Positions 1-16,201 of a DNA stretch of 40,119 nucleotides are shown here, piece by piece; the first letter of the stretch is position 1, and every line of letters starts with the position of its first letter. The notes under the pieces are model-generated. The model was not told the origin of the DNA, made no database searches, and was given only the letters and a program-made list of their open reading frames with translations. Origin of the DNA: an uncultured Ruminococcus sp. (GTDB lineage Bacteria; Bacillota; Clostridia; Oscillospirales; Ruminococcaceae). A program made the translations under genes and the position numbers. The stretch covers positions 1 to 40,119 of the forward strand of contig CADAEJ010000027.1 in the NCBI GenBank assembly GCA_902786965.1. Direction: 5' to 3'.

Positions 1-540
1 CTGAATGTCATCTTCCATATCGGGATCATCGTCCTCGTCAAACTGTTCTTCAAGCTCGTACATATCCTGCCTCGATTCGATTTCACGCTGTGATGACACG
101 TCCAACGCTCTTGACTGTGCTTCAAGCAGATAGCTCGTATCCATGCCGTTTTCAAGGTATCCCTCCCATATCGTCTGCATGTAATAGCTTGACGGCGGAT
201 TGATCTGCCTTGTATCCTTCGTCATCAGATACGCCATACCAACGCACTTTTCGCCGTTCAGCTCAAACTCCACATTTTCTTTGTAGTAGCTGTTCGGGAA
301 TCCTTCGTAGTGGTCAAGCCTCGGGATATCTCTCGGATCCAGCTCCCACAGCAGGATCGGTACTTCCGCATCTTTGTTGGGAACGATATTGGCAACTCCA
401 CGAAACTCTAACTCCCAGCCTTTCAGCATCGCAGGATCGAGTGGCTTTGAGTGTGGACACCTCATTGCCATCTGCCACAGATTGATGTTGCTGCCATATG
501 CGATATACAGCAGTTTCTTTGGTTCTTCTCTATTACTCAT
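1..540 (-). CDS. Gamma-glutamylcyclotransferase-like (AIG2/GGCT fold) protein, 3' end outside the window
   Basis: The minus-strand frame is open from an ATG at 540 to the window edge, giving 180 visible codons. An AAAGGAG ribosome site lies just upstream, between this start and the stop of the amidoligase gene. The N-terminus carries the YGSN motif (about residues 15-18) that forms the substrate loop of gamma-glutamylcyclotransferase/AIG2 proteins. Residues 76-81 read LDHYEG, the family's usual region around the catalytic Glu. The visible C-terminal part is very acidic (runs of D and E). Enzymes of this fold release a gamma-glutamyl group as 5-oxoproline. Together with the adjacent amidoligase, the gene probably reverses or processes an amide or isopeptide bond. 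The substrate cannot be read from sequence. The family call is firm; the role is inferred from the pairing. Confidence 0.82.
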   Translation of the reverse strand, partial: MSNREEPKKLLYIAYGSNINLWQMAMRCPHSKPLDPAMLKGWELEFRGVANIVPNKDAEVPILLWELDPRDIPRLDHYEGFPNSYYKENVEFELNGEKCVGMAYLMTKDTRQINPPSSYYMQTIWEGYLENGMDTSYLLEAQSRALDVSSQREIESRQDMYELEEQFDEDDDPDMEDDIQ

Positions 541-551
541 ATTTCTCCTTT

Positions 552-1583
552 CTACATACTCATTTCCATTGCTTCTGTCTCATCTTCGGTTTCCTCCGGT
601 TCTTCAGACTGAGCAGGCTCAATGTGTTGAACCCGCTGTCTTTGTGCCTTTAGCCTTTCACGCTGTGCTATGGCATCTTCGGGGTGTCTCCAGGCAATAT
701 TTCCGTCAAGATGTTTGAGCAGATGCGTTCTGCAATTCTTGAACTCGTCACCGATCAAGCCTAAATTCAGCAGAAAAACACGAAAGCTGTACCGCATATT
801 GTCTGAATGCGATACAGCCGGTGAACAATATTTCTTTGTAAATGCGGCATTTGAGATAGCAAGTGCGAGAACGATCTGTGCTCTCACCTCGCCTGCGTGA
901 AGACTTGCGTTGCAGGCTCGTATCTCGAAATGCCCGTGCTGAAAGTAGCTGTGCAGGTTTAGTGCGTGGTAACGAGTCGGATTGTAGTGATTGCTCGGTG
1001 ACTGATAAGTCTCCGAATACCACATCTGCTTGATCTTTTCCATATCCTTTGGTTTGCGGTGGTTGAGCTGCTCGACAAAGCTGCGGTTTATCTTTTTGCA
1101 GTAAGTCGACCGAGCAGATGATACCTGAAGTGCGTCCCAGAGGAAATCTTCCTTGCTCGACCAGATGTTTACGAGATTGCGTATCTTTTGTGCATCAAAA
1201 TCCGAAGCATCGATATGGACATGCGTACCGCAGTCATACTGCGGACCTGTGATCGCACCCGCACTTCGGAGACCTCGTATGACCGATTGCAGAAGAGGAA
1301 TATCCTCATAGTCAAGCACGGGACTGTTCATCTCGACCTTGTACAGATCACTCGCCCTGTCGCCGTTTTTCTTGTATGGATCAATGCTTGCATCTGACAC
1401 AATGCTCCAGGCTCTGCCGTCCTCATCATAGATCTTGTACTTATCGTAATTGCCTCCGATATGCTCAACAGAACCGCCAAGCACATCTCGGATAGCCTTT
1501 GCAGCAGAGCAGCGGGTTATTCCCGTCATCTCGATCTCGATACCGAACCGCCGATTTTTGATACCTTCAAAGTTTCCAGCCAT
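552..1583 (-). CDS. Amidoligase_2 family enzyme (COOH-NH2 ligase of glutamine-synthetase-like fold)
   Basis: This is a 343-residue protein. An in-frame ATG exists at 1604, but a GGGAGGTGA ribosome site six bases before the ATG at 1583 decides the start (MAGNFEGI). Near the N-terminus is FGIEIEM, the metal-binding beta-strand motif of the Amidoligase_2 family. Later come GTHVHID and a region with HFEIRACN, both typical of this glutamine-synthetase-like ATP-dependent ligase fold. The C-terminus is low-complexity and Glu-rich. Family members are thought to form amide or isopeptide bonds on peptides or cell-surface material. They commonly sit beside GGCT-like genes in conjugative elements and phages, exactly as here (11-base gap to the next gene). 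Its leader contains a promoter, an operator and an attenuator-like hairpin. The target substrate is unknown. Confidence 0.88.
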   Translation of the reverse strand: MAGNFEGIKNRRFGIEIEMTGITRCSAAKAIRDVLGGSVEHIGGNYDKYKIYDEDGRAWSIVSDASIDPYKKNGDRASDLYKVEMNSPVLDYEDIPLLQSVIRGLRSAGAITGPQYDCGTHVHIDASDFDAQKIRNLVNIWSSKEDFLWDALQVSSARSTYCKKINRSFVEQLNHRKPKDMEKIKQMWYSETYQSPSNHYNPTRYHALNLHSYFQHGHFEIRACNASLHAGEVRAQIVLALAISNAAFTKKYCSPAVSHSDNMRYSFRVFLLNLGLIGDEFKNCRTHLLKHLDGNIAWRHPEDAIAQRERLKAQRQRVQHIEPAQSEEPEETEDETEAMEMSM

Positions 1584-1613
1584 GATTTCACCTCCCTTCA
1601 TCAAAAAATGGGC

Positions 1614-1662
1614 ACAAAAAAAGCTCGTACCTATCGGTTCTTCTGAACCAATTTGTACGAGC
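1614..1662 (-). terminator. Terminator-like hairpin in the leader of the amidoligase gene (possible attenuator)
   Basis: On the minus strand, arms GCTCGTAC (1655-1662) and GTACGAGC (1623-1630) enclose an inner GGTTC/GAACC stem (1636-1640, 1645-1649) with loop AGAA. Seven T follow directly. This is a canonical intrinsic terminator, but it lies between the promoter and the amidoligase ribosome site, so it may act as an attenuator. No alternative antiterminator was worked out. Confidence 0.72.
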
Positions 1663-1716
1663 AGTCGAAATATCTTGAGCTTTGAACAATTATTCTATTG
1701 TGTGGAATACAAAAAT

Positions 1717-1732
1717 CTGCGTAGATACGCAG
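1717..1732 (-). other. Small perfect hairpin in the amidoligase leader
   Basis: CTGCGTA and TACGCAG form a 7-bp stem with a 2-base loop. On the minus strand it is followed by ATTTTTG, so it could be a weak pause or terminator upstream of the stronger hairpin at 1614-1662. Confidence 0.4.
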
Positions 1733-1759
1733 TTAACCAAGAATACATTTATTGAAATT

Positions 1760-1798
1760 CTATACAAATTGTATAGTGACACTCAAATGTCTATGCAA
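1760..1798 (-). promoter_or_regulatory. Promoter of the amidoligase operon with a palindromic operator over the -10 box
   Basis: On the minus strand, TTGCAT (1793-1798) and TATACA (1770-1775) are separated by 17 bases. A near-perfect 17-base palindrome, CTATACAA-A-TTGTATAG (1760-1776), covers the -10 box and is a likely repressor site. The hairpins downstream lie in the resulting leader of about 180 bases. Confidence 0.6.
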
Positions 1799-1816
1799 AG
1801 AGTAATTCTTAGTTAT

Positions 1817-1836
1817 TATACTATTATAATAGTATA
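1817..1836. repeat. Perfect 20-base AT-rich palindrome
   Basis: The arm TATACTATTA and its exact reverse complement abut without a loop. It lies in gene-free DNA between the minus-strand amidoligase promoter and the first gene of the plus-strand surface operon. It may be an operator, a cruciform or a recombination scar; nothing decides between these. Confidence 0.4.
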
Positions 1837-1949
1837 TTGTTATGAATGATTCCTAATCAAAATGTCATCATTGGTTTTTGACTATAAGTCAGTTCGTTCT
1901 TTAGGTATGGAAGTGCCGAATTATCGACATAATAACGACTGACATCTTT
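1837..1949 (+). other. Gene-free junction between the mobile-type operon and the surface-protein operon
   Basis: No coding frame is supportable here. The stretch holds TTGACTATAAGTCAG (1878-1892), which recurs upstream of the Cys-rich wall protein at 18883-18897. Here the spacing-matched -10 (TTAGGT, 1901-1906) is poor. The frame of the next gene is open back to a stop at 1902-1904 but contains no ATG, GTG or TTG before 1950, and no ribosome site. This fits loss of the 5' end of that gene. Confidence 0.5.
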
Positions 1950-2882
1950 ATGGACTTTGCATCTATCGCATGGTTCGCAATGAATAAAGCGGTATCCGCC
2001 GATACTATGGCAATACAGGCAGCAGATGCCCCGTTTGAAATAAAAACTACAGGCACAAAGCAGGGTCTGTATGATGATTTTCTGGACGAGGTAACGTCCG
2101 GTGCATACGCTTCGGATAGAACAACAATCGGACATAAAGGCATAAAGTGGATGCTGACAAAAGACACGTCAGAGATGGAAAACTACTATGATGGAGACAC
2201 TGAACCGGATATGTCGAGCATAACAAGACTTGATTCGGAAAAGTACGGGCTTAAACCCGGAGATCATGGTACTCTGAAATTTACGGTTGTTTCAAAAACA
2301 TCTTCCGATATTGATGTTTCCATCGTTTTGAAAAATACCGCATATAAAGCAAAGTTTAATACTGATAATACCAAAACCGATGATTCTCTCACAGAGGTAA
2401 CAAATACATCTATAAACAATTATCTTGCTTCACATATCCTTTTCTTCTATAAGGGAAACGATAATAAAAAGCATTTGCTCGCCTCTGAAGGTTTTGACGA
2501 AAACGTGCTTGCAGATGGTGAAAAGGAAGTTACGTTATACTGGGTGTGGACTGCTACTTTGAGAGAGATACTTGAGGCTGATATCAAGGGCTTGGATGAT
2601 ACTGACGCTGCTAAAGAGGTAAGACGGTATTTCTTTGAGCACCCGGATTTCTTCCTTAAACCGATAGGAGATGAAAGCTTCAGTATGATCAGCGTACCGC
2701 ATAACGACGATGCTTCTGCTGAAGAAACTGCTATCCAAGCCAAAATAGCAGAGCTGTCGATGCTGGGAAAGGATTATAATCAGTTCAGCTCAAAGTACAA
2801 TGATGCCGATCAGGCGATCGGAGATAACGCAAATTACTTGCTTGTTGAATTAACTGCAAAACTCGCATCAAATGGTAATTAA
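1950..2882 (+). CDS. Short surface protein with WFA-type (SipW/TasA-like) N-terminus, probably 5'-truncated
   Basis: This 310-residue frame begins MDFASIAWFAMNK. The AWFAMN segment is the distal end of a signal or anchor helix typical of Firmicute TasA/camelysin-like fibre proteins, often cleaved by a SipW signal peptidase. The preceding positively charged part and most of the hydrophobic stretch are missing, and there is no ribosome site before the ATG at 1950. The gene therefore looks decapitated at its 5' end. The body has a LKPGDHGTLKFTVVS strand pattern (about residues 108-122) and a YWVW motif after a predicted beta domain, both recurrent in this family. It lies 31 bases before the likely start of the next gene and probably shared its operon. 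Its function is presumably a surface fibre or accessory subunit, by inference only. Whether it is still made is doubtful. Confidence 0.6.
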   Translation: MDFASIAWFAMNKAVSADTMAIQAADAPFEIKTTGTKQGLYDDFLDEVTSGAYASDRTTIGHKGIKWMLTKDTSEMENYYDGDTEPDMSSITRLDSEKYGLKPGDHGTLKFTVVSKTSSDIDVSIVLKNTAYKAKFNTDNTKTDDSLTEVTNTSINNYLASHILFFYKGNDNKKHLLASEGFDENVLADGEKEVTLYWVWTATLREILEADIKGLDDTDAAKEVRRYFFEHPDFFLKPIGDESFSMISVPHNDDASAEETAIQAKIAELSMLGKDYNQFSSKYNDADQAIGDNANYLLVELTAKLASNGN

Positions 2883-2913
2883 GGATAACCGTATAAAAAA
2901 GGTGGTGGCAGCT

Positions 2914-3624
2914 TTGAACATTATAAAAAGAATAACTGCGAAGTTTAAAAAGCTGCGCACCAAGGACAGAATTATGGCAATTGCCGCACTTGCACTGACG
3001 ATGGCAGTTATGATCGCTGTTCCGACAATGGCGTGGTTTGCTCATCAGAAGCAGATAGCAACAATGGCAAAGATAAACTCTCCGTCAAAACTGTCGCTTA
3101 AATCCGGTGCTCGCGAAGATATCATACAGTTCAAAATGTCGGGTATCGATACGACCAAGGGCAGCTCTAAAGATTTTGTATTCTGCGTTGAGGGTGAAGA
3201 TATATCAAACTATAATATACAGTTAGCCCATACAACGAATATAAACTTCAGCTATAAATTATATAAGGCTACCGAGTCTTCTGACAGTACCGGCGTAGAA
3301 TATCTGTCAGAAAACGGATCTGTGTACTATACCAGAAGAGATGAATTGGACGGAGGCTATGTAAATAACGAAACAAAGGGTACCAGAACCATAGGAAATG
3401 ATGAATATGAAAAACCAAGCTATGATGATACAAATATCAGGCAGGATTTTGCAGAGCCACTGTATTGGCAGTCTTCTATGATAACTGCGGAAGATGAAAC
3501 ATATGATGACGATCAGGCGGAACGTTCATTCAGAAACTATTATATTCTTGAGGTTTCATGGGGCAATGATGTCACAAATGATAAGGAAACCGACCTGATC
3601 TACCTGACTGCACAGGTTGCATAA
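2914..3624 (+). CDS. Short secreted/anchored protein with AWFA signal-anchor (TasA/SipW-type)
   Basis: The protein has 236 residues from a TTG at 2914. That start is preferred because AAAAAAGGTGGTGG precedes it at the right distance; the ATG at 2872 overlaps the previous gene and lacks a ribosome site. The N-terminus is Lys/Arg-rich (KKLRTKDR), then a hydrophobic helix ending in VPTMAWFAHQ, the layout of a SipW-type signal or single membrane anchor. The rest is a mostly beta, acidic, Tyr-rich extracellular domain with no recognised catalytic motif. It is the second of four same-strand genes ending in a giant adhesin-like protein. A structural or adaptor role at the cell surface is inferred. 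No SipW-type peptidase gene lies in the window, so processing would need one elsewhere. Confidence 0.72.
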   Translation: MNIIKRITAKFKKLRTKDRIMAIAALALTMAVMIAVPTMAWFAHQKQIATMAKINSPSKLSLKSGAREDIIQFKMSGIDTTKGSSKDFVFCVEGEDISNYNIQLAHTTNINFSYKLYKATESSDSTGVEYLSENGSVYYTRRDELDGGYVNNETKGTRTIGNDEYEKPSYDDTNIRQDFAEPLYWQSSMITAEDETYDDDQAERSFRNYYILEVSWGNDVTNDKETDLIYLTAQVA

Positions 3625-3650
3625 GAAATATTATGAAAGGAGGAACGGCA

Positions 3651-4691
3651 ATGAATAAAATAGTAAAAGGCTTTAAAAAGCATTGGATCAAAATCTGGCT
3701 TATTGTTGCAGCCGTTTCTCTGTCAATTGTATCCACTTATGCCATATATACAAGAGTTACCGTTGCAAAACGTGTAGTATCAACGCAAGCCGGAGCAGAG
3801 AGCCTCTTCAGTTCGGATTATATGAGCCAGAAAGGAATGACTACTACTGTATCAAAAAACGATAGTTCTGAAGATGCACAAGTCGAAATGCATGTTTTCA
3901 ACTATGCGTATCCTAAGGAATCGGTCTACAGAAATTCTCTGACCCAGTATGATTTAACTGCAACAATAGGAACATTGGATGCAAACGGCGCGTTTACAGA
4001 GCTTGCTGATACCGCTGGCCTGACAGGACGTACATATAGTATCACCTATAACAAGAACAGCGTCTCGTTCAGTTTTAATGCTGCAAACGGAACAAAGCAT
4101 ACATTTACCGATTGCTCCATCTTGGGTGAAAATGCCAATGAGGATCTGTTCACATTGGTCTTCGATAAATCCGAACTTGGAGAAAATGCGAACAACTATT
4201 GTATCAAGCTTGAGGCAGAACCATACGATAACGATTTGCCGAAATTGACAGGATATGTTAAAGTAAGGTATTCCAGATCTGCATCGAATGGCTGGCGAGG
4301 AGAAGTTGAAACGCTGGATGCATCAAAGGATTATGATGGATTCAATTACTATCTTGAAGGTAACGGAACGGGAATGCTCACATTCAGATGGGATAAATCA
4401 AAAGTGACCATTAATAAGCAGTTCCTAAATAATAAGGATAATCAATTCTTTAATAGGACTTCGGAAAATGTTTATGCAGCTTATACGCAGCCGCTTGATG
4501 AAGCATCATTGCCGACTGACCCCAATAACAGCAATATGGTGTCGCTGACTATAAAAGTCGATTCGTCAAAGCGGAACAGATATGAGGTGCAGTTCTATAA
4601 GGTCGATCCAACAAACATATATGATAAATCAGCTGTAGAAGGATACCTTCCAAATACAAATCCAAGCGATTGGAATCCTGATCAGACATAA
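3651..4691 (+). CDS. Membrane-anchored/secreted surface protein of the giant-adhesin operon
   Basis: The protein has 346 residues. The ATG at 3651 follows AAAGGAGG; an in-frame ATG at 3633 includes the ribosome site itself and is rejected. The N-terminus is KGFKKHWIKI, then one hydrophobic helix (about residues 13-33) ending STYAIYTRVTVAKR. This resembles the second gene's anchor but has YAIYTR where that one has AWFA. The extracellular part has alternating beta-type segments and is rich in Ser, Thr, Asn and Asp. It ends without an LPXTG sortase signal. It lies 26 bases after the preceding gene and 49 before the giant gene, so the four are almost surely one transcript. No known domain was recognised with confidence; a fibre or anchor subunit is inferred. 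Confidence 0.7.
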   Translation: MNKIVKGFKKHWIKIWLIVAAVSLSIVSTYAIYTRVTVAKRVVSTQAGAESLFSSDYMSQKGMTTTVSKNDSSEDAQVEMHVFNYAYPKESVYRNSLTQYDLTATIGTLDANGAFTELADTAGLTGRTYSITYNKNSVSFSFNAANGTKHTFTDCSILGENANEDLFTLVFDKSELGENANNYCIKLEAEPYDNDLPKLTGYVKVRYSRSASNGWRGEVETLDASKDYDGFNYYLEGNGTGMLTFRWDKSKVTINKQFLNNKDNQFFNRTSENVYAAYTQPLDEASLPTDPNNSNMVSLTIKVDSSKRNRYEVQFYKVDPTNIYDKSAVEGYLPNTNPSDWNPDQT

Positions 4692-4740
4692 TAGGTAAGG
4701 AAAGAAAGACTCAAAACAGTTTAGTAAAAGTGGTGATAAA

Positions 4741-7700
4741 ATGAAACACACAAATATAATAAAAAAATCGCTGCTAAAAAAGACCGCTGCGGTTATAACA
4801 TCGGTGATAATGCTTGCGACCAGTCTGAGCTTCCCCGAATTAAAAGACGGCTTCAAGGAAATGTTCCTTGAGACCAGCGCAGCTGTGCCATCAGGAACAA
4901 TAAATAGAAACTATCCAACAATATACACTCTGAAGAGCTTGTATCAGTTTTCGGAAGACTATCATAATGATCCGGCATCTTTCCAAAGAGCAAAGGTACC
5001 AATCAGTATTACTGAAGCAGTAGAGATATCTGCCACAAAAACATTCGATGGTGTAGAAAAAACATGGTATCCGATAGGAACTGAAGACCATCCGTTTGGC
5101 GGTAGAATTGAAATAGCAACAACAGGAACATCTCAGAATTTTACAGTAAACGAACCGTTGTTTGATCAAATAATGGATTCTGTTGAGATCATAACAACCA
5201 ATACCACTGATACACAGAGTATAGTTTTAGTCAGAAATGATGATGTACCGTCAGGAGAAGACAAGCCTTTATTTGCAAACAAAGTCGTAAAAGATAAATT
5301 GAGTGGAGCAACTTCTGCCACCTGGGATATTACTACAGAAGGAACAGGAACAAATTCAGGAGTAGTTGGTACTGTTGGTGATGGAACGGACGGTGCGACT
5401 GTTAACATTGATCTTACCTTGAAATCGTCATCGGGAATTGAGGCAGAGAACAATGCAGGAATTATCTGCGGAACGGTAAAGAAAGATTCTAAAGTTAATG
5501 TAAGTATTTCCGACAGCAGTACATCACAACTCAGTAGTATTAAATCGAAATCGGAGAATGCAGGCGGATTCGTCGGCGAAATGTGTCAAGGTTCTGAACT
5601 TAACATCACCTACGGTAATACGTACTCGATTTCAAATTCCAATAGAACCATAACCGGAAAGAAAAACGCCGGTGGACTTGTAGGAAAAAACGATCAAGGA
5701 ACTGTAACAATAAACAGGCAAAATGGAACAGTTAATGCCGAACAGACTTATGAAGCATCAGGCAGTGTAGTTGCAGATACTTCTGATGGTGCAGCCGGCG
5801 GTATATTCGGTTACTATAAAGTGCCTTCATCCAACGACAAGTTCTCTCCTAAGTATTATAAAACATCAAGTGCAGGCTGCTCGCTGAAAGGAAAAATAGC
5901 GGGTGGTCTGGTTGGCGTGCTTGAAGGGAACGGAAAAGACATATCATATTCGGGCACACCGGCGGATCCGGCAAATAATGTTGCTGAAAATATAATTGCT
6001 GTTGTTTCAACACTCTCATCATCGGCAACAACTTATGGCGGAATAATCGGAGTTTATTCAAACACTGACTTGAAAAAGACAATGACCATAGAATATGTTG
6101 ATGTTACCATGAAGAGCAACCAGGCAACAAACTATGGTGGAGCAGTAGGTAGTATACGCAGCGATAATAATGACACAGCAGTATACGTTAAGGTTGACAA
6201 CTTTACAATGAGGTCGGAAGGAAACGTTGACAGCTGTACATATTTTGGCGGCGTGATCGGCAGCGCAGGAAGTAAAGGCAGTATGCTTGACATAGGCAAC
6301 ATAAGTATTACTACTACCAAGAATTACAAGGGCGGCGGCGTGGTAGGTCAACTCAATGCCGGCGTATTGCGCCTTAGCGGAGTAACAAACCTTAGCGGTG
6401 CAAATGCCTCTTCAGGCGGACAGATTGTTGGCGAGCGTACAAATGCACTTGTTTATGCATTGGGCAGCGGAAATGATGAAGGTGCTTCTTTTGAAAATGG
6501 TTGGAAATTCATCAGGTCGACGAATGACGTTGCTGTAGATGATATAGGCACATGGGGCGAAGTTGTCCGCATAAGTAATATCGAAGAAAAAGATCCCTCT
6601 TCAGGAACAAGTACCAGTGTACTGTTATATGATAGCAGTAACCATACCGTTAAAGTAGCATCTGCAGTTACTGATATGCGCTCCAAAGAAGATTTTGTCA
6701 AAACTGCACTTAATATGCAGCTGAATGATGGAACTGTCGGTGCGCTCAGTTTTAATGGATCCAACAGAAGCAGCCTGCTATCTGACAAAACCCTTACCGT
6801 TTTTGGAACAATTGACCTTAGCGGAACTGGTATTACCGGTTTTATGCGTGATGGCTACAAAAGTAACGATAGCAGCGAAATACAGGCTTTTACCGGTACA
6901 CTTAGCAAGGGTTCCCATGGTGACGACGAAGAAGATGCTGATGCTGTTATAAAGTTAGCAGTAGGTGAACGCTACGGCGTTTATTCGGGAAGTGAAAACG
7001 GTCGAGGAGCGATCCACAGACATAAGTACAACGGGCTTTTTGCCCGCACAGGTCAAGGCGCCGCTATCAGTGATATAACCATTGATGGTACGATGAATAT
7101 CAGATCATACACTAGTGATATGACTGTCGGCGGAGCAATTGCATATCTCCAAAATGGGGCGACTCTTACAAGCGTAAGTGCTAAAGAGACAATTAATTTT
7201 TATGATTCAAATTCAAATAACACTAATGGTCAGTACGTTGGAGGACTCGTTGGCAGAACAAATTGTGCTGAGAATCAAAATGTTACTATTGGAGGAACCG
7301 ATGGAAACAAAGCACTAATTGCTCCAACTATTAATGTTACAGGTAATCTGCGCAACAACGAAAGTAATAGTGATAAGACTGTCGTTTACCAGTCCATAGG
7401 CGGTCTTATTGGGTTTATTGGTTCGGAAGCTTCTGCCAAGACAACGGTTGACAACATAACTCTGTCAGCTACAATAGATGCCTCATCGGCAGCAGCGGCG
7501 GAAAATGTGTCGACCGCAGGTCTTATTGCTGATATTAAGTGGTATTCTAGCGACACAAGGACTCTGGAATTATCTAATATAGATGTTAAAAATACATCTG
7601 TAAAAAACACTGCCGCAAACACTACAGGAGGTATATTGGGATATCGTTGGTATGGCACCGATGTTACTTTTGATAATGTTGTTATTGATAACGGTGATAA

Positions 7701-10700
7701 AAACGAGATAAATGAGATAAACTCTTCGGCTAAATATGTAGGCGGACTTGTATACAGAGCAACCGGTCATTGGCTCGTAAACGATGCGGGTATTACTATA
7801 AATTCTATCGCATTTAAAAATGGCAATGAAACTTCTAAGCCTACAGGTCTTGGAATAATTGTTCATGATGGCTATTATTCAAACAACGGCTTGTACCTGG
7901 AACTGAGAGGTGTTAACAGTTATATTCTTACAAGTGGTTTGTCTGACATCCCGGATATGACAGCTCCAGGTAAGATTTATGATGAACTCTGTGCGTGTCT
8001 GGCAGATAGTGCGGATCATATACTTACTAATAATACAGCCGGAGTTATTTCGTATCATACCAGTGACGACGTGTATACCAGCACCGAAGAGATTAAGAAT
8101 AGTTATGACAACGTCTATAATACTAAAGTTGTAAACAACAGATCAAGATACTATTATAATGCCGATTTAGATTCATATACCATCAATAGTTCAGACGATG
8201 GTTACAAATTATTATACTGGAGTCTTAATCGCTATGCTGCAGCTAATATAAAACGTTGCTTTACTAATCCGTTTAGTAATAATGTTTTAAGTGGTACTTT
8301 TGACCTTAATCATATCTCTTATTATCCTATCGACATATCAAGTGATGTCAGCATTGGTGGCTCTACGTTCGTTTTCTATAACACAGAGATAGAACAATCA
8401 GAGATCGACAGTGACACAAAGCGTTCCACAAGAGATACAGTTACTTCCGGTGGCAGCGTTTTGGGAAAATCCCAGCATTATATGATGCATATGGGATTGT
8501 TTAGAAATGTTACAGCCACTGTAAATACAACAGACAATATAACTATGTCTGGCTCTGTTGGTGTCAACAGCGTCTATTCAGGTGCGCTTATAAACGGCAC
8601 CCTTACAGGTTCGCTTAATACTGCTGCCGCAAAAAATATATTTTTGGGTGATGCAAATTATATGAAGCCTCTTGAAATAAGCGATCCGAGTAGGTATTTG
8701 CTTATAAACAAGATTGGCGACAAAGCTGTTATGAATCTTAACGGATTATGGATAAATAATACTTATACCACGAGTGGTAATACCACATATGCAAGCAGTC
8801 TCATAGGTGATGTTCAGGGAACAGGTATAAGCCTGACATTCAATAATATTAAAATAGATGCCAGAAATAAGGAAGGCGTGTCTATAACAGGTTCGTTATA
8901 TGGTACTTCCAGATCTATTTTTTCAAACGCAACTTTACTGAATAAATATGATGTTGATTCCACTTCTGTTGCAGTTTATAATTTCTCGCAGAAGGAAGAC
9001 TGGGGCTCTAATTCGGTTGTAAATAAGACGAATAGAAGTAACGGAGGAAAAGTAACATTCGGTCGCGAGCTTACAGACTCGGTAGAATATGCAAACGAAG
9101 AAAAAATGTACTATGAGAACGGAGAGAACGGTAATTATATCTCGCCTGTAACCTATCCCGGCAAGTATTCTTCTGAAACAGCACCTTTAGGAACAGAGTA
9201 TGATTTTAGTTCGGATTATTTGCCTTATGTACGATATTTTACATCAGATACTACAAAAATCTCTGATTCTCCTACAGCAACCTACACATTACGTGAAATA
9301 AGGGTAAATGTTGTTCCTTCTGATCTTACAACTGGATGTGGAACATATGATCATCCATATAGCATAACCAGCCCTAAGCAGCTTTCAGCAGTTTCTATAA
9401 TGCTGGACGGAACTACACCTATTCCGAACATAATGCTTCCTGAAACTGACAATGGCTCACATTGGTGCTGCACAGCTACTGATGCAAGCGGCAATAATAC
9501 TTACAGCTGTTTGCTGTTCACATATGATAGTAACATTTCAAAATATAAGCATGATTTTACAATTACAACCACGGATTCTGAAACTGGGGCTGAGATAACT
9601 ACTGTTACTCGAACAGCTTATTGGGAAACTGATGCTGTTCGTAAATACCTTGCCAGTGCTTATTATCAGATCGGCAGCAATATCGAACTTAGTACTACTT
9701 TCACAGGCTTGGGAGCATATGATAGTGATTATGCATTTAAGGGTGTTATTGTTGGTATTAATAATAATACTACAGTAACAAACAAGACAAATGTTCCTCT
9801 TATTAAAGTCAGCAACGGAAGTGTTGTAAAGGATCTGAAGATAATTGTAAACAATACTGGTACGTTTGGCTCGGGCGGAAGCAGGGACACGAAATTCGGA
9901 TATAGCAATAAATATTTATTCTATGGTGGCGTTATGGGCGAAATAATGGGCGGAGATAATATAATTGATAATGTCTCCGTGACATATTCAAATAATGGGT
10001 ATGTCAAAACCCAAGGAAATAGTCTTATGTGTGTTGGCGGTTACGTCGGTGTCATCGTAAATGGTGGACTTGTTTTCAGAAATATGGATTCAAATAAATT
10101 TATAAGCAAAACTAATTTTAAGGTTAATAGCCAGGGTGTATCTAACCAAGAAAACTGGGTTCTCAATGAAAATAATGAAACATCGCATAAGCATCTCTAT
10201 GTAAACCCTTATATCGGCAGAGTCATCAATGGCTATGCTATAAATGAAACTACCACTTACAGTGGCGATTCCGAGAAGTATACCCTTGATAACAGCACAA
10301 AAAATTATCAGATAGCTGATGTAAATGTAAATGTTACTGATAATGATAAACTGTATTATAATACCTTCAAGTCAACTGATGACCGTGTCAATATCCCGAC
10401 AGGGCAGTCACTGTTTATCCTTTCTTTGATCACTCAATCTGGTGCGGGTACAGCACCATCGGCAACAGACGAATATGCTCACGGCATCGCCTATGATGGT
10501 TCGAATCGGTTCGATGAAACAAGTGCTGCTAAGAATGTCGCAACACACCTTGCACAATACGACAAGGTGGGCACCGCCGTGTTTGCTGATAAAGCAGGCG
10601 ACTATGCTCTTGCAGCAAAGGATACCTATGGCAGCAAAAATGCTGTGCCATATATAATCAGCCACTATACAAAGACTGATACATATGGGAATTATCCTGC

Positions 10701-13700
10701 AAGAAAGCTTACCGGCAATACTGATTTCATGAAGCTTTCTACTGCGAACGGAACGTATAACCTGCCTAAAGGCTTCAGAGGTATAGGCTCGATATGTCGA
10801 TTCAAGCAAGAGGATGTTGACGGCAAATATACTATGAAGATATACGGCTTTGATGGTAATAACAGCAAGGTAAACATAGACCTCACGTATAATACCTATA
10901 ACAGTGATAGTGATAATTACAGCTACAAAATATATGGCTCATCTACAGTTTATGTAGGCTTTGGCCTGTTCAATTATCTTGTTCAAAAACCTAAGGGCGA
11001 TAACAGGACTTCATATTATCTGGACGATGGTTATTATATCGGTAAATTTACGATCTCCGGCAGTGTGACTGTGAATGAATACAATACATCCGGAGCGCGT
11101 CAGGACGGTGAAGGTCAGAATAACGACAATAACCGTAAAAGAATGCCGGCAGCTGCATTTGTTGCAGGTACCGGTCATGAAAAGTATCTGAACCTTTACA
11201 GGCTCGACCTTGAAAATGTGACAGTTACAGGCTCGTCAAATGTTGCCGGCTATATCGGCAGAAACAATATCGCCGAAAATAATGTCCAAGGTAAAACTAA
11301 CCCCAATGATAAAGTGTATGTATTTGTAAATGCCTGCAATACCACACGCACAAAGCTTATAGGCAGCGGCGGAAGCTGCGGAGGAATAGTTGGTCACAGC
11401 CGTGGCGGATATATTGATCTGTTTGTAAACACAGCCCCCAACGGCAATACGGCTGATACTGAGCGAAGAGGCGATGACGGCTATTTCAAGAGCACTATGG
11501 AGCTTGACATCAAGAATGACTCAAATTTTGCAGAAAGCGGTTGCGGTGGTATCCTCGGTGGTATCCGTAACGGTTATCAGGTACATCTTTGGGTCAATAA
11601 TGTTACGATCTCCGGCTATACAGATACCTCGAAGATCGAAAACACAAGTACGACTGTTGCCAGTTCGCTCCCGTCCGGTGCCGGCGGAATGTTCGGATAT
11701 GTCAGAAAAGCAGAATCTGTTATCATAACAAACTGCATTGTCAAGGATATAAGTGTTACGGGTCCTGTTGCAGGAGGTCTGTTCGGCAATATCGACCTGT
11801 TTGATGACAAACCTGAATATGGTGTTTCTCCTAAGATAAAGATATATAACACCAAGGTCTATGCTGAAGAAAAGAATAAATTCAGCATTAACGGCGTAGC
11901 TTTTTCAGGCGGTCTGGCTGGCCAGTTCATTTCAAGCAAAACATATGAAACTCCAGTTACAGGTTATAACAATAGCAGCTTTGTCTACGATATAGACGGC
12001 TGCGAAGTCTATAATTACACGATCACGCAGAATTCTAATGCCGATATGCAGTACGGTGCAGGCGGAATGATCGGCTATGCTAAAAAGGCTCAGAGAACTA
12101 TTGTTAACTCACGTGTTCATGACTGCACTATCAAAGCCAACGCTGATAGTAATAAACACGGTATGGGCGGTGTAGTCGGGAATTCGGAATATGCTATCTG
12201 GGGCTATAATATTGCTGCTTATAACAATTCGTTTGAATATCTCAGCGAAGGTGGCAATACACTTGCAAAATACGGCAGCTTTATAGGCAATTCCAACAGC
12301 AAGGAGCTCAAGATCGTTGGCTTTACGAGAAAGAACAATAATCTTGGTGAAACAGCAGTCAGTCAGGACTGGGGTAACGGTGCAGGAAGCAATTCCTATG
12401 TCATCGATGCCGACTATATGAACGTCAGCACAACAAATGCTCATAATACAGCAATGGCTGTAGGCTTTGATAACGGCACTAACGTCGATCAAGGTGCTGC
12501 AAAGAATTATTTCCCGTATGTAACGGTAAGTCCTAAGGTTAGGATGGGCGGAGATAACTTCCTGACAGGTGACGGCGTAAGTATCTATAATAATTCGCCT
12601 CTTGCAAAGCTGATAGTTACTGAGAATAGCGAAACTGCAGCGGATAACAGAATAGCTTACAAAACAGTTAGCAATGAGGATATTGCAAATGTCAAAGAGC
12701 TGATAAGCTACGGCGAAGATACTACAAAGGATAATGATATCAAGCTGACTACCTATTGTTCCGAAATGGGACGTCCCGAAGGTTATACAGGAGATGACTT
12801 CCCGATAATTGCTATCAATGGCGCACAAACGAATTACAACGCTTATATCAATGCGTATATCCGTACTCTGACTAATACGACCGATAGCTATAATTCCGAT
12901 GTCAATGAAAAGTTTACTGTTGATATCTTCCCATGTCAGTGTATAAGCGGAGTTTATCGGAAGGTAAGCGGTACATCAGGATTCCAGAGAAAAAGCGGTA
13001 ACTTTGTAATGGTAGATTCAGCTGCGGATTCTATAGCACAGAACAATCAGATATCAATGATCGATATCAGATTCCTCGACCCCACCGATAGTGGTAAGAC
13101 AGCGTATCATCTGTATATTCCTGTTCTTACCAAGAAGATGCTTAAGTTTAATTTCAGTTCAACTGCACTTCAGGGAACAGAGTATGAACCAAGTGTATAT
13201 AAATCAAATTTTGAGAACAACGAGTGGGGAACCAATACTAAGCTCGGAGCTGGCTTTGATTCATGGCAAACGATCTACGTTCAGTTTGAGTATACAAAGA
13301 ACGAAGTAAATAAATTCCTTGAAACAGGAAAAAGATTTAATTGGAATACCCCTAAGGAATTGTACTTCGAATATCAGGGTGACAGATCAATAGCTGATTC
13401 AACACAGTACGTTTTGCTGGATAACAACAATGGTGCTGATAAGGAATACTATATCACTAAGAGCGATGCTGGCATACAAACGCAAATATCAGCAGATCTT
13501 AACGTTTATGATGTTATTAAATTCAATGAGTTTACAACATCAAGAAACAATGCATCGCAGATCTCGCCAAGTGAAAAATTCTCACAGCATCAGCAGACAC
13601 TAAATGAAATAGCAGGCAAGAGCGTTGTGTATACAACAGCAAATAACGGAATGTATGTTCCATGCGAAAATCAGACCCAGCATTCCGATGCTATTGCTTT

Positions 13701-15276
13701 TGGTTATGACAAATCTAATCCTGCTGATAGTAATATTATCTGGTTCAGAGAGTATAAATCCGGAGATACACAAAGGTATAATCTTGAGGTTACAGATGAT
13801 ATTATCGAATCATATTATCTTAGTATGTACACATTCGGCAGTGATAATACCAAAACAGCACCGACCAATAATGCATATGGATTCATTGTAAGATCTCCTA
13901 TGACAATAACGAGTGACGTTATAACATGTCAAAGAGAAAATATGAAGAATACAGAGATCTATCTTGGAAACTTCCTTAAGCAAACCCTGATCATATCAAA
14001 GGCTTCTGAGTATGTAAATCAGAACAATAAAATCTCGCTTGAAAATAACACTCTTAATGCAAAACTTATTGCAACAGTGGAGGTTGATGCGGGAGATCCA
14101 AGACTTACAGGATACTTTTTCACCAAGCTTACCAATGAAAAGTTGTATCAAGGATTCTTGCTTTATTTAAATCGATACGATAAAGACGGTAATCTGAATA
14201 AAGAAAGCTCGATACTTGGCAACCCGACTTACTCTATAATCACCAAATCAAATGGTCAGCAGGTTATGCAGTATGGTGACAGTATAGATGAAGGTGAACC
14301 GTATCTTTATATCGATCCGATACAGATCCAAGTACCTGAACAGGAATCGTCCGATTGGAAGAGTACACAGGAAGTAGAAATAACCTTGACCTTCAATTGT
14401 GATGAACAATCTCTGATAAACGAGTTTACAACACATTCAAGAGATAGTGATCTCAGCGGTGTTGAAATTGATGCATCAGCTAAGCTTGAATTTGTTGCCG
14501 AAAGAGTTCCGTACAGTAACAACATAGAAAAGACAAAAGCATCTGACAGACCCGGCGTAAGATACTATGTTGACAGAACTGCTGTAAATGGAAAGCTTAC
14601 TCTGACAGCTCTTGATCAGCCTGATAACGACGAATATGATCCGTATGGCGAACAAAGCCATAACAGAAGTGCCCTGGGCATAAATGCGAAATATATTGAC
14701 CAGGGAGTTAAGTATTCGGAAAAGGGCGATACAGAGCATATAGATATCGGTATGGATTATGACATCTCTCAATTGCCTGAAGAAGAGATCTTCGACGGAA
14801 ATCATACACTGAATTTCACAATTAAGCTTAAACAAAAGCAAAATTCAGATAACAGTGCAGGGTTCACGTATGAGGACGTTAATATTGAGGATGTTGATGC
14901 ACAGAATAATAAACTTGGTTATCTTGAAAACTTTAAGTTCTACGGTCAGCCTAACTCAAGTACGTTGAATTTAGTTTCACGTGGAATTGATGTGGGTGAA
15001 GACGGATGCCTGTACTATACTTATAGTATGGCACTGCCGTCTGACAAGCAGAACATGGCGATAAAGTATAACAGTGATAACAAACACTTTAATGCCAATT
15101 TTGAGTTTGATGTAAGAACTGCAGCAAAACTTGAAGCTATACCCGGATATAAATACGCAAACTATAAGTTTGAAGTAACTGCAGAGATCACAGGTGATAC
15201 CAATTATTCAAGCGATGATCACGTTATCTATACAAATGCAAAAGTAAATGCAGAGTATGTTAAGAAGGCAGGGTAA
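4741..15276 (+). CDS. Giant 3511-residue secreted adhesin-like protein with GLUG/beta-helix repeats
   Basis: The ATG at 4741 follows AGTGGTGAT. A signal peptide is clear: KKSLLKK, then a hydrophobic core (AAVITSVIMLATSLSF). From about residue 240 to 2520 the protein carries at least 25 irregular GLUG-like motifs of the form (A/V/Y)GG(L/I/V)(V/I/F)G, for example AGGLVGKN, YGGIIGVY, VGGLVGRT, GAGGMFGY. Each is followed by a polar turn and beta strands with Asn-rich ladders, the hallmark of right-handed beta-helix or GLUG adhesins. Two non-GLUG stretches interrupt the helix. The last roughly 900 residues are non-repetitive beta-rich domains. No LPXTG, CWB2, SLH or dockerin motif is visible at the C-terminus, so how it is retained is unclear; the three small anchored proteins upstream are candidate partners. 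Its function is probably adhesion or matrix formation (inferred). Confidence 0.85.
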   Translation: MKHTNIIKKSLLKKTAAVITSVIMLATSLSFPELKDGFKEMFLETSAAVPSGTINRNYPTIYTLKSLYQFSEDYHNDPASFQRAKVPISITEAVEISATKTFDGVEKTWYPIGTEDHPFGGRIEIATTGTSQNFTVNEPLFDQIMDSVEIITTNTTDTQSIVLVRNDDVPSGEDKPLFANKVVKDKLSGATSATWDITTEGTGTNSGVVGTVGDGTDGATVNIDLTLKSSSGIEAENNAGIICGTVKKDSKVNVSISDSSTSQLSSIKSKSENAGGFVGEMCQGSELNITYGNTYSISNSNRTITGKKNAGGLVGKNDQGTVTINRQNGTVNAEQTYEASGSVVADTSDGAAGGIFGYYKVPSSNDKFSPKYYKTSSAGCSLKGKIAGGLVGVLEGNGKDISYSGTPADPANNVAENIIAVVSTLSSSATTYGGIIGVYSNTDLKKTMTIEYVDVTMKSNQATNYGGAVGSIRSDNNDTAVYVKVDNFTMRSEGNVDSCTYFGGVIGSAGSKGSMLDIGNISITTTKNYKGGGVVGQLNAGVLRLSGVTNLSGANASSGGQIVGERTNALVYALGSGNDEGASFENGWKFIRSTNDVAVDDIGTWGEVVRISNIEEKDPSSGTSTSVLLYDSSNHTVKVASAVTDMRSKEDFVKTALNMQLNDGTVGALSFNGSNRSSLLSDKTLTVFGTIDLSGTGITGFMRDGYKSNDSSEIQAFTGTLSKGSHGDDEEDADAVIKLAVGERYGVYSGSENGRGAIHRHKYNGLFARTGQGAAISDITIDGTMNIRSYTSDMTVGGAIAYLQNGATLTSVSAKETINFYDSNSNNTNGQYVGGLVGRTNCAENQNVTIGGTDGNKALIAPTINVTGNLRNNESNSDKTVVYQSIGGLIGFIGSEASAKTTVDNITLSATIDASSAAAAENVSTAGLIADIKWYSSDTRTLELSNIDVKNTSVKNTAANTTGGILGYRWYGTDVTFDNVVIDNGDKNEINEINSSAKYVGGLVYRATGHWLVNDAGITINSIAFKNGNETSKPTGLGIIVHDGYYSNNGLYLELRGVNSYILTSGLSDIPDMTAPGKIYDELCACLADSADHILTNNTAGVISYHTSDDVYTSTEEIKNSYDNVYNTKVVNNRSRYYYNADLDSYTINSSDDGYKLLYWSLNRYAAANIKRCFTNPFSNNVLSGTFDLNHISYYPIDISSDVSIGGSTFVFYNTEIEQSEIDSDTKRSTRDTVTSGGSVLGKSQHYMMHMGLFRNVTATVNTTDNITMSGSVGVNSVYSGALINGTLTGSLNTAAAKNIFLGDANYMKPLEISDPSRYLLINKIGDKAVMNLNGLWINNTYTTSGNTTYASSLIGDVQGTGISLTFNNIKIDARNKEGVSITGSLYGTSRSIFSNATLLNKYDVDSTSVAVYNFSQKEDWGSNSVVNKTNRSNGGKVTFGRELTDSVEYANEEKMYYENGENGNYISPVTYPGKYSSETAPLGTEYDFSSDYLPYVRYFTSDTTKISDSPTATYTLREIRVNVVPSDLTTGCGTYDHPYSITSPKQLSAVSIMLDGTTPIPNIMLPETDNGSHWCCTATDASGNNTYSCLLFTYDSNISKYKHDFTITTTDSETGAEITTVTRTAYWETDAVRKYLASAYYQIGSNIELSTTFTGLGAYDSDYAFKGVIVGINNNTTVTNKTNVPLIKVSNGSVVKDLKIIVNNTGTFGSGGSRDTKFGYSNKYLFYGGVMGEIMGGDNIIDNVSVTYSNNGYVKTQGNSLMCVGGYVGVIVNGGLVFRNMDSNKFISKTNFKVNSQGVSNQENWVLNENNETSHKHLYVNPYIGRVINGYAINETTTYSGDSEKYTLDNSTKNYQIADVNVNVTDNDKLYYNTFKSTDDRVNIPTGQSLFILSLITQSGAGTAPSATDEYAHGIAYDGSNRFDETSAAKNVATHLAQYDKVGTAVFADKAGDYALAAKDTYGSKNAVPYIISHYTKTDTYGNYPARKLTGNTDFMKLSTANGTYNLPKGFRGIGSICRFKQEDVDGKYTMKIYGFDGNNSKVNIDLTYNTYNSDSDNYSYKIYGSSTVYVGFGLFNYLVQKPKGDNRTSYYLDDGYYIGKFTISGSVTVNEYNTSGARQDGEGQNNDNNRKRMPAAAFVAGTGHEKYLNLYRLDLENVTVTGSSNVAGYIGRNNIAENNVQGKTNPNDKVYVFVNACNTTRTKLIGSGGSCGGIVGHSRGGYIDLFVNTAPNGNTADTERRGDDGYFKSTMELDIKNDSNFAESGCGGILGGIRNGYQVHLWVNNVTISGYTDTSKIENTSTTVASSLPSGAGGMFGYVRKAESVIITNCIVKDISVTGPVAGGLFGNIDLFDDKPEYGVSPKIKIYNTKVYAEEKNKFSINGVAFSGGLAGQFISSKTYETPVTGYNNSSFVYDIDGCEVYNYTITQNSNADMQYGAGGMIGYAKKAQRTIVNSRVHDCTIKANADSNKHGMGGVVGNSEYAIWGYNIAAYNNSFEYLSEGGNTLAKYGSFIGNSNSKELKIVGFTRKNNNLGETAVSQDWGNGAGSNSYVIDADYMNVSTTNAHNTAMAVGFDNGTNVDQGAAKNYFPYVTVSPKVRMGGDNFLTGDGVSIYNNSPLAKLIVTENSETAADNRIAYKTVSNEDIANVKELISYGEDTTKDNDIKLTTYCSEMGRPEGYTGDDFPIIAINGAQTNYNAYINAYIRTLTNTTDSYNSDVNEKFTVDIFPCQCISGVYRKVSGTSGFQRKSGNFVMVDSAADSIAQNNQISMIDIRFLDPTDSGKTAYHLYIPVLTKKMLKFNFSSTALQGTEYEPSVYKSNFENNEWGTNTKLGAGFDSWQTIYVQFEYTKNEVNKFLETGKRFNWNTPKELYFEYQGDRSIADSTQYVLLDNNNGADKEYYITKSDAGIQTQISADLNVYDVIKFNEFTTSRNNASQISPSEKFSQHQQTLNEIAGKSVVYTTANNGMYVPCENQTQHSDAIAFGYDKSNPADSNIIWFREYKSGDTQRYNLEVTDDIIESYYLSMYTFGSDNTKTAPTNNAYGFIVRSPMTITSDVITCQRENMKNTEIYLGNFLKQTLIISKASEYVNQNNKISLENNTLNAKLIATVEVDAGDPRLTGYFFTKLTNEKLYQGFLLYLNRYDKDGNLNKESSILGNPTYSIITKSNGQQVMQYGDSIDEGEPYLYIDPIQIQVPEQESSDWKSTQEVEITLTFNCDEQSLINEFTTHSRDSDLSGVEIDASAKLEFVAERVPYSNNIEKTKASDRPGVRYYVDRTAVNGKLTLTALDQPDNDEYDPYGEQSHNRSALGINAKYIDQGVKYSEKGDTEHIDIGMDYDISQLPEEEIFDGNHTLNFTIKLKQKQNSDNSAGFTYEDVNIEDVDAQNNKLGYLENFKFYGQPNSSTLNLVSRGIDVGEDGCLYYTYSMALPSDKQNMAIKYNSDNKHFNANFEFDVRTAAKLEAIPGYKYANYKFEVTAEITGDTNYSSDDHVIYTNAKVNAEYVKKAG
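5440..12320 (+). repeat. Array of degenerate GLUG-type repeats inside the giant protein
   Basis: The repeats are visible in protein rather than as DNA identity. GG(L/I/V)xG motifs recur at irregular spacing (roughly 25-90 residues), densest at 5440-7760 and again at 9920-12310. The low DNA similarity between copies indicates old divergence, unlike the beads in the wall protein at 18951-24812. Confidence 0.65.
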
Positions 15277-15527: not shown

Positions 15528-15827
15528 ATGGGATCCAAAACAACCATGGCAATAGCAACAGTCAAACATGAACTTCGTCTTAACGAGTGGTCATCACAGA
15601 TAAAAGCCCAGCAGCAAAGCGGTCTGAGTGTCCGCAGCTGGTGTGCGCAAAATGGGATCAACCCAAAGACATATTACTATCGCTTGAGAAGAGTCCGTGA
15701 AGAATGTGTCGAAGCAGCACCCGCTGTCGTAGTATCCATATTGTCAAAAACAATCTGCAGATATCTTTGCCGGCTGATATATCTTCTGATACCTTGGTTT
15801 CTTTGGTGCATGAGCTATGCTGAATGA
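15528..15827 (+). pseudogene. tnpA: IS66 accessory gene tnpA, frameshifted
   Basis: The first 70 or so residues are a normal IS66 TnpA N-terminus with a helix-turn-helix (LSVRSWCAQNGINPKTYYYRL). After the A-run at 15746-15750 the frame goes wrong and ends in an unrelated hydrophobic tail at 15827. Reading one base back from that run restores KNNLQISLPAD..LVSLVHELC and a stop at 15821-15823 that overlaps the tnpB start, as expected for this family. The simplest explanation is loss of one A from a six-A run. A programmed -1 shift was considered, but the full A-AAA-AAC heptamer is absent. Confidence 0.75.
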
Positions 15828-16173: not shown

Positions 16174-16201
16174 AGCAAAAACAGCGGAAAATTCAGAATA
16201 A

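What the first reader, a model, noticed from the sequence alone, without database searches (positions are those of the whole stretch)
1950..15276. Four-gene surface operon: three small WFA/TasA-like proteins plus a 3511-residue GLUG giant
Three same-strand small proteins, each with a single N-terminal anchor or signal helix (two ending in AWFA), are followed by one of the largest proteins a Firmicute is likely to encode. The giant has a signal peptide, at least 25 GLUG-like turns and no visible wall anchor. TasA/SipW-type proteins build extracellular fibres in Bacillus. Here such proteins could anchor or assemble the giant, making a matrix or adhesion system that I do not recognise as described. 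The same-strand order and signal helices are seen; the joint role is inferred.
Basis: partly seen in the sequence, partly recalled or inferred. Interest (0 to 1): 0.8.

Follow-up and report, generated by a model that had tools for sequence, protein, structure and literature searches.

The report
Surface operon cut by mobile element
A conserved four-gene set that makes a giant surface protein in rumen bacteria is real, but here its first gene has been cut in two by what looks like a mobile element landing at one precise codon, a spot that related elements and tiny swap-in cassettes also hit in other bacteria.

Summary
The four ORFs are real and the set p1-p2-p3-giant is strongly conserved. Of the best 80 public relatives, 79 have p1, 78 p3 and 72 the giant in place; most misses are contig ends. 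The p1 in this window, however, has no N-terminal helix. It is the right half of a gene cut at one Ile codon (1965-1967). Its left half (promoter-like stretch plus 'head') lies on contig C5 in the usual upstream context, beside three serine recombinases. Window 1-1964 looks like that element's other end: both ends carry a 7-bp arm 18-24 bp from the cut. C5 also carries conjugation genes and an intact second operon.

The codon is a hotspot. Four other p1 genes are cut there, and six AWF-motif (TasA-like) genes at the matching codon. A 246-bp cassette (four copies, three genomes) also sits there. It carries the same arm and gives p1 a new head, leaving the old one as an orphan.

Shown: conservation, split, recurrence, shared arms, cassettes. 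Inferred: one element joins both contigs; a fibre displays a beta-helical giant; recombination switches or re-heads the operon. TasA and GLUG memberships were not confirmed.

The parts
1..540 (-). GGACT/AIG2-like gene (runs off the contig), right end of the inserted element
   Evidence: Pfam PF06094 E 7.6e-11; its counterpart lies close to a serine recombinase in R. bicirculans (L077)
552..1604 (-). amidoligase gene, element cargo next to the junction
   Evidence: PF12224 E 5e-64; 67% nt identity over 945 nt to L077, where amidoligase follows the 3' end of a serine recombinase on the same strand
1941..1947 (-). attP-like arm AGATGTC (reverse strand), 18-24 bp from the crossover core
   Evidence: AGATGAC stands at the same offset in the other end on C5 and in some other elements
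1965..1967 (+). Ile codon of F-A-S-I-A-W-F: integration point (core AT) splitting p1
   Evidence: orphan head matches residues 2-66 and window body residues 53-371 of intact L035 p1; junction alignments
1968..2882 (+). p1 body, headless (frame open from 1905, first ATG 1950)
   Evidence: 74% identical to intact p1 of G027; promoter-like stretch and head at about G000:C5:43530-43240 (-)
2872..3624 (+). p2, membrane-anchored AWFA protein; likely start TTG 2914
   Evidence: homologues in 19 of 29 same-genus genomes, own included, and 110 public-genome loci, 80 kept; AF2 model mean pLDDT 76, two helices then beta-rich domain
3633..4691 (+). p3, membrane-anchored protein with KRVVST..LFSS motif; likely start ATG 3651
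   Evidence: directly after p2 in 78 of 80 loci; alignment A3
4741..15276 (+). p4, giant secreted protein, 3511 aa, N-terminal part predicted beta-helix-like
   Evidence: 16 aligned giants, window included, 3312-3837 aa (the one from L040 may be cut by its stretch end); residues 60-760 AF2 pLDDT 85.5, pTM 0.89; 17 GG[LIFVM]xG turns

Best explanation
The resident operon p1-p2-p3-giant is a conserved surface module of rumen and gut Clostridia. p1, p2 and p3 are membrane-anchored exported proteins; the giant is a secreted, probably beta-helical protein without wall anchor. In this genome an integrative conjugative element with a triplet of large serine recombinases has recombined with the Ile codon of p1's FASIAWF motif. 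Promoter and 'head' (cytoplasmic tail plus export helix) now sit beside the recombinases on contig C5. The body of p1 and the rest of the operon sit behind the element's other end in the window. The same codon, and its counterpart in other AWF-motif (TasA-like) genes, is an integration hotspot (attB). A 246-bp cassette carrying one attP-like arm, a stop, a ribosome-binding site and a new head also enters there and gives p1 a different head. SHOWN by sequence: the split, the symmetric arms, the recurrence, the 246-bp unit on unrelated bodies, operon conservation, and a second operon on the recombinase-bearing contig with conjugation genes. INFERRED: that the two contigs carry the two ends of one element, that the element moves the second operon, that integration silences the resident p1 while the element's copy takes over (surface switching), that excision can reverse it, and that the proteins build a fibre showing the giant.
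For: Split: the window body aligns to intact p1 from residue 53, the orphan head on C5 to residues 2-66. The orphan head keeps the ABC-transporter context found upstream of p1 in other genomes. Recombinases: Resolvase + Recombinase + Zn ribbon at C5:38393-42547, the middle one without Resolvase domain. One element: arms AGATGAC and AGATGTC at 18-24 bp on both sides (shuffle p 0.0008); in R. bicirculans recombinase, amidoligase and GGACT lie in the order and strand expected of the circular form. Hotspot: headless p1 in window, L032, L164, L168, L177; headless AWF-motif genes in L147, L191, pRUMAL02 x2, G019 x2. Arm motif with at most 1 mismatch in 6 of 12 ends (of 16 examined, 4 left out as close relatives), against 2 of 636 at other offsets and 1 of 93 at other AWF-type sites. 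Cassette: 246 bp in L070 (twice), L100 and, by alignment coordinates, L127. The three units next to bodies are 88-91% identical in DNA while those p1 bodies are only 28-31% identical in protein, and the three old heads 25-32%. Conjugation genes on C5: T4SS coupling protein, TrbL, TraG P-loop ATPase.
Against: C5 and C27 are separate contigs of a 125-contig draft, so their link is inferred. A tyrosine integrase lies just upstream of the second operon, so that operon could sit on a nested element. The arm has 2 mismatches in the L032/L164/L168 end and 3-4 in L177, L147, L191, L069 and pRUMAL02 261549-. Three of the arm-bearing ends (pRUMAL02 259098+, both G019 ends) resemble each other along the whole arm, so they are not fully independent. 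The right end of the 246-bp cassette shows no such arm. Relatives of the recombinase occur in genomes without p1 (G019, G013), and 11 of 14 stretches fetched beside them showed no cut AWF-motif gene. L168 and L032 hold too little upstream DNA to show a whole recombinase. No expression, excision or protein data exist. Neither fold search gave a match at E <= 0.001.
Confidence: 0.72

Rival explanations
1. The operon is intact and p1 is made from ATG 1950 as a short-headed protein.
For: The frame 1950-2882 is open and p2, p3 and the giant are uninterrupted.
Against: No export helix, no ribosome-binding site visible at 1950, heads present in the 18 other p1 proteins aligned, matching orphan head elsewhere in the same genome, and the same break in other genomes.
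Confidence: 0.05
2. The junction is an assembly error or a simple rearrangement (inversion) rather than an insertion.
For: The two halves are on different contigs of a 125-contig draft; contig ends fall within p1 heads in G022 and G027, so the region is repeat-prone.
Against: Symmetric arms at both ends, recombinases at one end, circular-form gene order in R. bicirculans, and the matching codon cut in ten other genes, among them two in the complete plasmid pRUMAL02, and L164 and L177 with recombinases on the same contig.
Confidence: 0.08
3. The insertion is a dead end: the resident operon is simply inactivated and decaying, with no switching role.
For: IS66 genes directly downstream of the giant; no evidence of excision; serine-triplet elements are known to disrupt target genes (PMC4701971, passages).
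Against: p2, p3 and the giant remain open over 12.4 kb; elsewhere cassettes supply new heads instead of destroying p1.
Confidence: 0.35
4. The 246-bp cassettes are tandem duplications or vertical inheritance, not a mobile unit.
For: Two copies are in direct tandem in G014; no copy was found in IMG/VR by exact pattern or in PLSDB by blastn; only one of 29 same-genus genomes has the whole unit.
Against: 88-91% nt identity of the units against 28-31% protein identity of the bodies they adjoin and 25-32% of the old heads; the left end carries the attP-like arm.
Confidence: 0.13

Closest known systems
Triplet serine-integrase ICEs of Streptococcus (mutT, traG, hsdM targets; PMC4701971, passages seen)
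   Same: Three co-oriented serine integrases at one end, site-specific insertion inside a protein gene that disrupts it, very short repeats, conjugation module.
   Different: Target is the export-helix end of AWF-motif surface genes and p1 of a giant-protein operon; the recombinase-bearing contig carries its own copy of the target operon; tiny head cassettes use the same site.
gin element in gerE of Bacillus cereus (PMC5595907, abstract and outline seen)
   Same: Element with three recombinase genes splits a host coding sequence at a short core.
   Different: gin excises in sporulation and restores gerE; no excision is shown here, and here the site is hit in several genomes.
TasA/TapA/SipW fibre system of Bacillus (recalled)
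   Same: Small AWF-motif secreted proteins with an N-terminal helix; SipW-like peptidases present in the genome.
   Different: No Pfam/NCBIfam match to TasA or camelysin; long cytoplasmic tails; a giant of 3300-3840 aa in the operon; no SipW in the operon.
GLUG-motif and IgA1-protease-like beta-helix proteins
   Same: GG[LIFVM]xG turns; first Foldseek row of the giant's N-terminal part is an IgA1 protease.
   Different: GLUG model below cut-off; Foldseek match not significant (E 0.23).
Elements that replace the 5' end of their target gene, such as SXT in prfC (recalled)
   Same: Incoming DNA supplies a new start for the interrupted gene.
   Different: Here the supplier can be a 246-bp unit without any recombinase gene.

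Membership tests
TasA/camelysin (PF12389, accession recalled) | Pfam profile match | tested here: not met
   no such match for p1, p2 or p3 up to E 1; none in NCBIfam
TasA/camelysin (PF12389, accession recalled) | SipW-type signal helix ending in A-W-F | tested here: inconclusive
   helix and AWF present by eye and hydropathy in p2 and in intact p1 relatives, but no NCBIfam signal-peptide model matched convincingly; absent from the window p1
TasA/camelysin (PF12389, accession recalled) | TasA fold and donor-strand fibre | tested here: inconclusive
   p2 model pLDDT 76, no PDB match at E <= 0.001; p1 and p3 not folded
GLUG motif proteins (PF07581) | Pfam profile above cut-off | tested here: not met
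   best in this giant 15.1 bits against 20.5
Triplet large-serine-recombinase element | three co-oriented serine recombinase genes at one end | tested here: met
   C5:38393-42547, Pfam Resolvase/Recombinase/Zn ribbon; middle one only Recombinase domain
Triplet large-serine-recombinase element | two half-site arms symmetric about a 2-bp core | tested here: met
   AGATGAC / AGATGTC at 18-24 bp on both sides of AT
Triplet large-serine-recombinase element | both ends on one contiguous element | tested here: inconclusive
   ends on contigs C5 and C27; linked only by arms and R. bicirculans gene order
Integrative conjugative element | type IV secretion genes | tested here: met
   T4SS-DNA_transf, TrbL_5, TraG P-loop at C5:1-6000; relaxase not searched
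Gene-intervening element with programmed excision (skin, gin) | excision restores the gene in some cells | not testable with these tools
   no reads or cultures

The most novel reading that the evidence does not exclude
Rumen Clostridia have a recombination-based head-swapping system for a giant surface fibre. A codon in the export-helix end of AWF-motif (TasA-like) genes serves as a shared attB. Conjugative elements that carry their own operon copy cut the resident operon and take over the surface, while 246-bp head cassettes without recombinase, mobilised in trans by triplet serine recombinases and leaving a usable attB behind them, restack new heads (and thus expression or export control) onto old bodies, much as an integron stacks cassettes.
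Probability: 0.37. Interest if true: 0.92.

Novelty: new variant of a known kind. Interest (0 to 1): 0.77.

Why it matters
It defines a conserved surface operon (three anchored proteins plus a secreted giant of 3300-3840 aa) in rumen and gut Clostridia, including R. albus 7 and R. flavefaciens, for which I found no description in the searches named. It also shows that the operon's first gene is a precise landing site for mobile elements, conjugative and phage-like. If recombination switches or re-heads the operon, surface variation in these bacteria becomes directly testable by PCR across one codon, and the 246-bp head cassette would be among the smallest gene-remodelling mobile units (my judgement). 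Serine recombinases with a defined half-site motif may also be useful tools.

Tried and rejected
Rejected: p1 as a complete gene; GLUG and TasA as formal memberships; p1, p2 and p3 as one family, since hhalign links p1 and p2 only over a 36-column membrane-helix stretch (E 2.6e-4, probability 42.5) and gives nothing useful for p3; the contig-end heads of G022 and G027 as orphans, since these contigs simply stop there; L105 (contig edge) and L163 (unclear start, no arm test) as headless cases.

Led nowhere: Rfam over six loci with p1 leaders (two gathering-level hits, neither at a leader); PDB sequence searches with A1-A3 (no hit up to E 1); Foldseek of p2 (top rows by E-value are pore-forming toxins with TM about 0.2, not meaningful); cassette in IMG/VR by exact pattern and in PLSDB by blastn; stretches beside recombinase relatives, 11 of 14 without a cut AWF-motif gene, two of them cut short by contig ends. 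Paper searches whose listings showed no description of this operon or target site: (open-access library only; I opened passages of PMC4701971 and PMC3672088 and the abstract and outline of PMC5595907). A Fisher test of recombinase nearby against headless p1 in the 80 loci (2 of 4 against 1 of 76, p 0.006; p 0.002 with L168 and L105 left out; L163 counted as headed) is weak because loci hold at most 10 kb upstream and only four have a recombinase; its counts were typed.

It also made clear that the old heads are three unrelated ones plus one earlier cassette head, not four unrelated ones.

Full report
Observation. The four ORFs exist as described. The protein at 1950-2882 begins MDFASIAWFAMNK, has no hydrophobic helix, and its frame is closed about 15 codons upstream. 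The giant has 17 GG[LIFVM]xG turns against 0.2 in shuffles and no LPxTG, but the Pfam GLUG model stays below its cut-off.

The operon is a real unit. p2 homologues occur in 19 of 29 same-genus genomes, own included. Contigs of G001 and G002 have the lengths of R. bicirculans 80/3 chromosome I and of plasmid pRUMAL02 of R. albus 7, so the genus is Ruminococcus. Of the 20 stretches fetched around such hits, 18 hold the order p1-p2-p3-giant (in L032 and L038 the giant runs off the stretch); L035 is a 3.8-kb contig that ends after p3, and L022 is rearranged. A public-genome scan found 110 relatives; of the best 80, 79 have p1 directly upstream, 78 p3 directly downstream and 72 the giant after p3. 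Eight loci miss something: six at contig ends, L109 (R. bicirculans, where the giant lies between p1 and p2) and L120 (no p3 found). By title, 37 of the 80 records carry a rumen or ruminant-gut isolate code (my count). In the wider order only 9 of 295 genomes had p2, own included, two of them weakly. The 16 aligned giants, window included, are 3312-3837 aa long (the one from L040 may be cut) although mostly 27-34% identical to this one where BLAST aligns them, with one at 54%.

Proteins. No credible family match in Pfam or NCBIfam for p1-p4 (only weak hits far below cut-offs). p2 is modelled as two N-terminal helices plus a beta-rich domain, pLDDT 76, without a significant PDB match. Giant residues 60-760 are modelled with pLDDT 85.5 and pTM 0.89 as many short strands; the Foldseek rows include beta-helix proteins such as IgA1 protease and tailspikes, none at E <= 0.001. 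SipW-like peptidases are present in the genus, 26 of 29 genomes over cut-off, on contig C6 in this genome. A fibre that carries the giant is the likely role, but it is inferred, and 'TasA-like' is a label from memory.

The split. An intact p1 from G027 (L035) as query finds the window body from residue 53 onward and an orphan head at G000:C5:43234-43428(-), residues 2-66. The orphan keeps the leader and the ABC-transporter genes seen upstream of p1 in several other genomes, runs to F-A-S-I and stops after five more codons. Next to it on C5 (38393-42547) are three co-oriented serine recombinases, the middle one without Resolvase domain. At the other break the window carries a GGACT gene and an amidoligase. 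In R. bicirculans a related recombinase is followed on the same strand by amidoligase and GGACT (L077), which is the order expected if the two ends of this element were joined in a circle. Both ends bear a 7-bp arm, AGATGAC or AGATGTC, at 18-24 bp from the AT of the Ile codon. I therefore read C5:43240 and window 1964 as the two ends of one element; the contigs do not prove it.

The element's cargo. C5:1-6000 has a T4SS coupling protein, TrbL and a TraG P-loop ATPase (VirB4-like by my reading). Further along come an Eco57I methylase, a helicase, a tyrosine integrase, then an intact second operon (p1 at C5:17052, giant ending near C5:31300; its frame is open over 3674 codons), WYL and LexA-like regulators, a PemK-like protein, a DinG-type helicase and the recombinase triplet. 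The head DNA of this second p1 is 91% identical to the orphan head over 187 positions, while the whole protein is 34% identical to L035, the window-type p1. pRUMAL02, typed as conjugative, carries two operons, one a few genes downstream of a recombinase triplet.

The hotspot. Head-only and body-only frames were sought in 108 loci, some of them the same contig fetched twice. Head-only: seven frames. One stops at a contig end (L063); the other six (own, L069, L070 twice, L100, L127) end at head-model position 62-64 of 64. Headless p1: window, L032, L164, L168, L177; L163 is unclear and L105 is a contig edge. L032, L164 and L168 share the same incoming end. L164 has a recombinase pair 1.3 kb away; L177 has recombinases, an AbiEii-like gene and an amidase that looks phage-like upstream. 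AWF-motif genes are cut at the matching Tyr-Ala-Trp-Phe in L147 and L191, just upstream of p1, with recombinases 4-5 kb away, and twice each in pRUMAL02 and G019, away from any operon, two of these four junctions lying 58 bp from a recombinase. Of 14 stretches fetched beside recombinase relatives, 3 (two overlapping) showed these; 11 did not. One search examined 16 ends; 12 were counted, leaving out L164, L168 and two cassette copies as relatives. The arm motif stands with at most one mismatch in 6 of 12, and in 4 of 10 without the two ends that defined it. The own window end was also in view by then, so the strictest count is 3 of 9, and those three (pRUMAL02 259098+, G019 twice) resemble each other. 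Controls: 2 of 636 other offsets, 1 of 93 other AWF-type sites. It is absent (3-4 mismatches) from L147, L191, L177, L069 and pRUMAL02 261549-, and has 2 mismatches in L032, so more than one specificity is involved.

The cassette. In G014:C140 three heads lie in tandem; the spacing between cut points is 246 bp twice, and 246 bp again in L100. R. flavefaciens YAD2003 (L127) has the same unit, 246 bp by alignment coordinates. Each copy begins with a linker carrying AGATGAC at 18-24, gives the preceding head a stop, has a ribosome-binding site and a new head ending in IFSS(L); the last copy is in frame with the p1 body. The units next to bodies are 88-91% identical in DNA (81-91% over all four copies), but the bodies behind them are only 28-31% identical in protein and the three old heads 25-32%; the fourth 'old head' is an earlier cassette's. 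The right end of the unit lacks the arm. In the genus the whole unit was found only in G014, with a 67-bp partial match in R. albus 7 (29 genomes). A 609-bp insert in G004 (L069) also leaves an orphan head and brings a promoter-like stretch and another head, but lacks the arm.

Mechanism and limits. Serine integrases recombine short attP and attB sites (established knowledge). The data fit attB = the conserved codons of (I/Y)-A-W-F in these genes. The right-hand junction of a cassette looks like a full attB again, which would allow stacking as seen in G014; this is inference. Whether integration silences the resident operon, whether the copy on C5 replaces it, and whether excision occurs cannot be told from DNA. 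Triplet integrases that break target genes are known in streptococcal ICEs (PMC4701971, passages), and a three-recombinase element that splits gerE is known in B. cereus (PMC5595907, abstract). I found no description of this target or of head cassettes in the search listings named, which cover open-access papers only; passages of an R. flavefaciens extracellular proteome (PMC3672088) showed none either.

Noticed in passing
window 15528-17509; L189 28458-30729; L190 29761-30001: IS66-type genes lie 0.3-2.8 kb downstream of the giant in the window and of both giants on pRUMAL02; recurrent 3' insertion or chance.
   Followed up: no
G000:C5 about 43530-43460; L035, L038, L039, L031 upstream of p1: p1 leaders share a conserved 5' UTR with a GGG..ACCC element and TTGACGAAAAAGTC, with a promoter-like TATAAT seen at C5; no Rfam match there. 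Possible regulatory RNA.
   Followed up: partly
window 18951-24812: A second large surface protein (1953 aa) with LRR_5, many short Cys-rich repeats and three CWB2 cell-wall domains, with a 237-bp tandem repeat at 21991-22497.
   Followed up: no
L109, L067, L022 (R. bicirculans 80/3): The operon is reordered as p1-giant-p2-p3 and the giant's reading frame is broken near its end.
   Followed up: no
L026 2599-3531; L028 15166-16185; L034 2324-3355: Some operons have an extra p1-like gene (p0) before p1 that matches the p1 body but lacks the AWF motif.
   Followed up: no
G022:C35 and C53 ends, G027:C39 end: Contigs stop inside p1 heads, in G022 twice with near-identical sequence, as expected if heads are repeats or vary in the population.
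   Followed up: no
L163 2091-2180: p1 with a hydrophobic stretch but no clear start codon; possible further cut or frameshifted head.
   Followed up: partly
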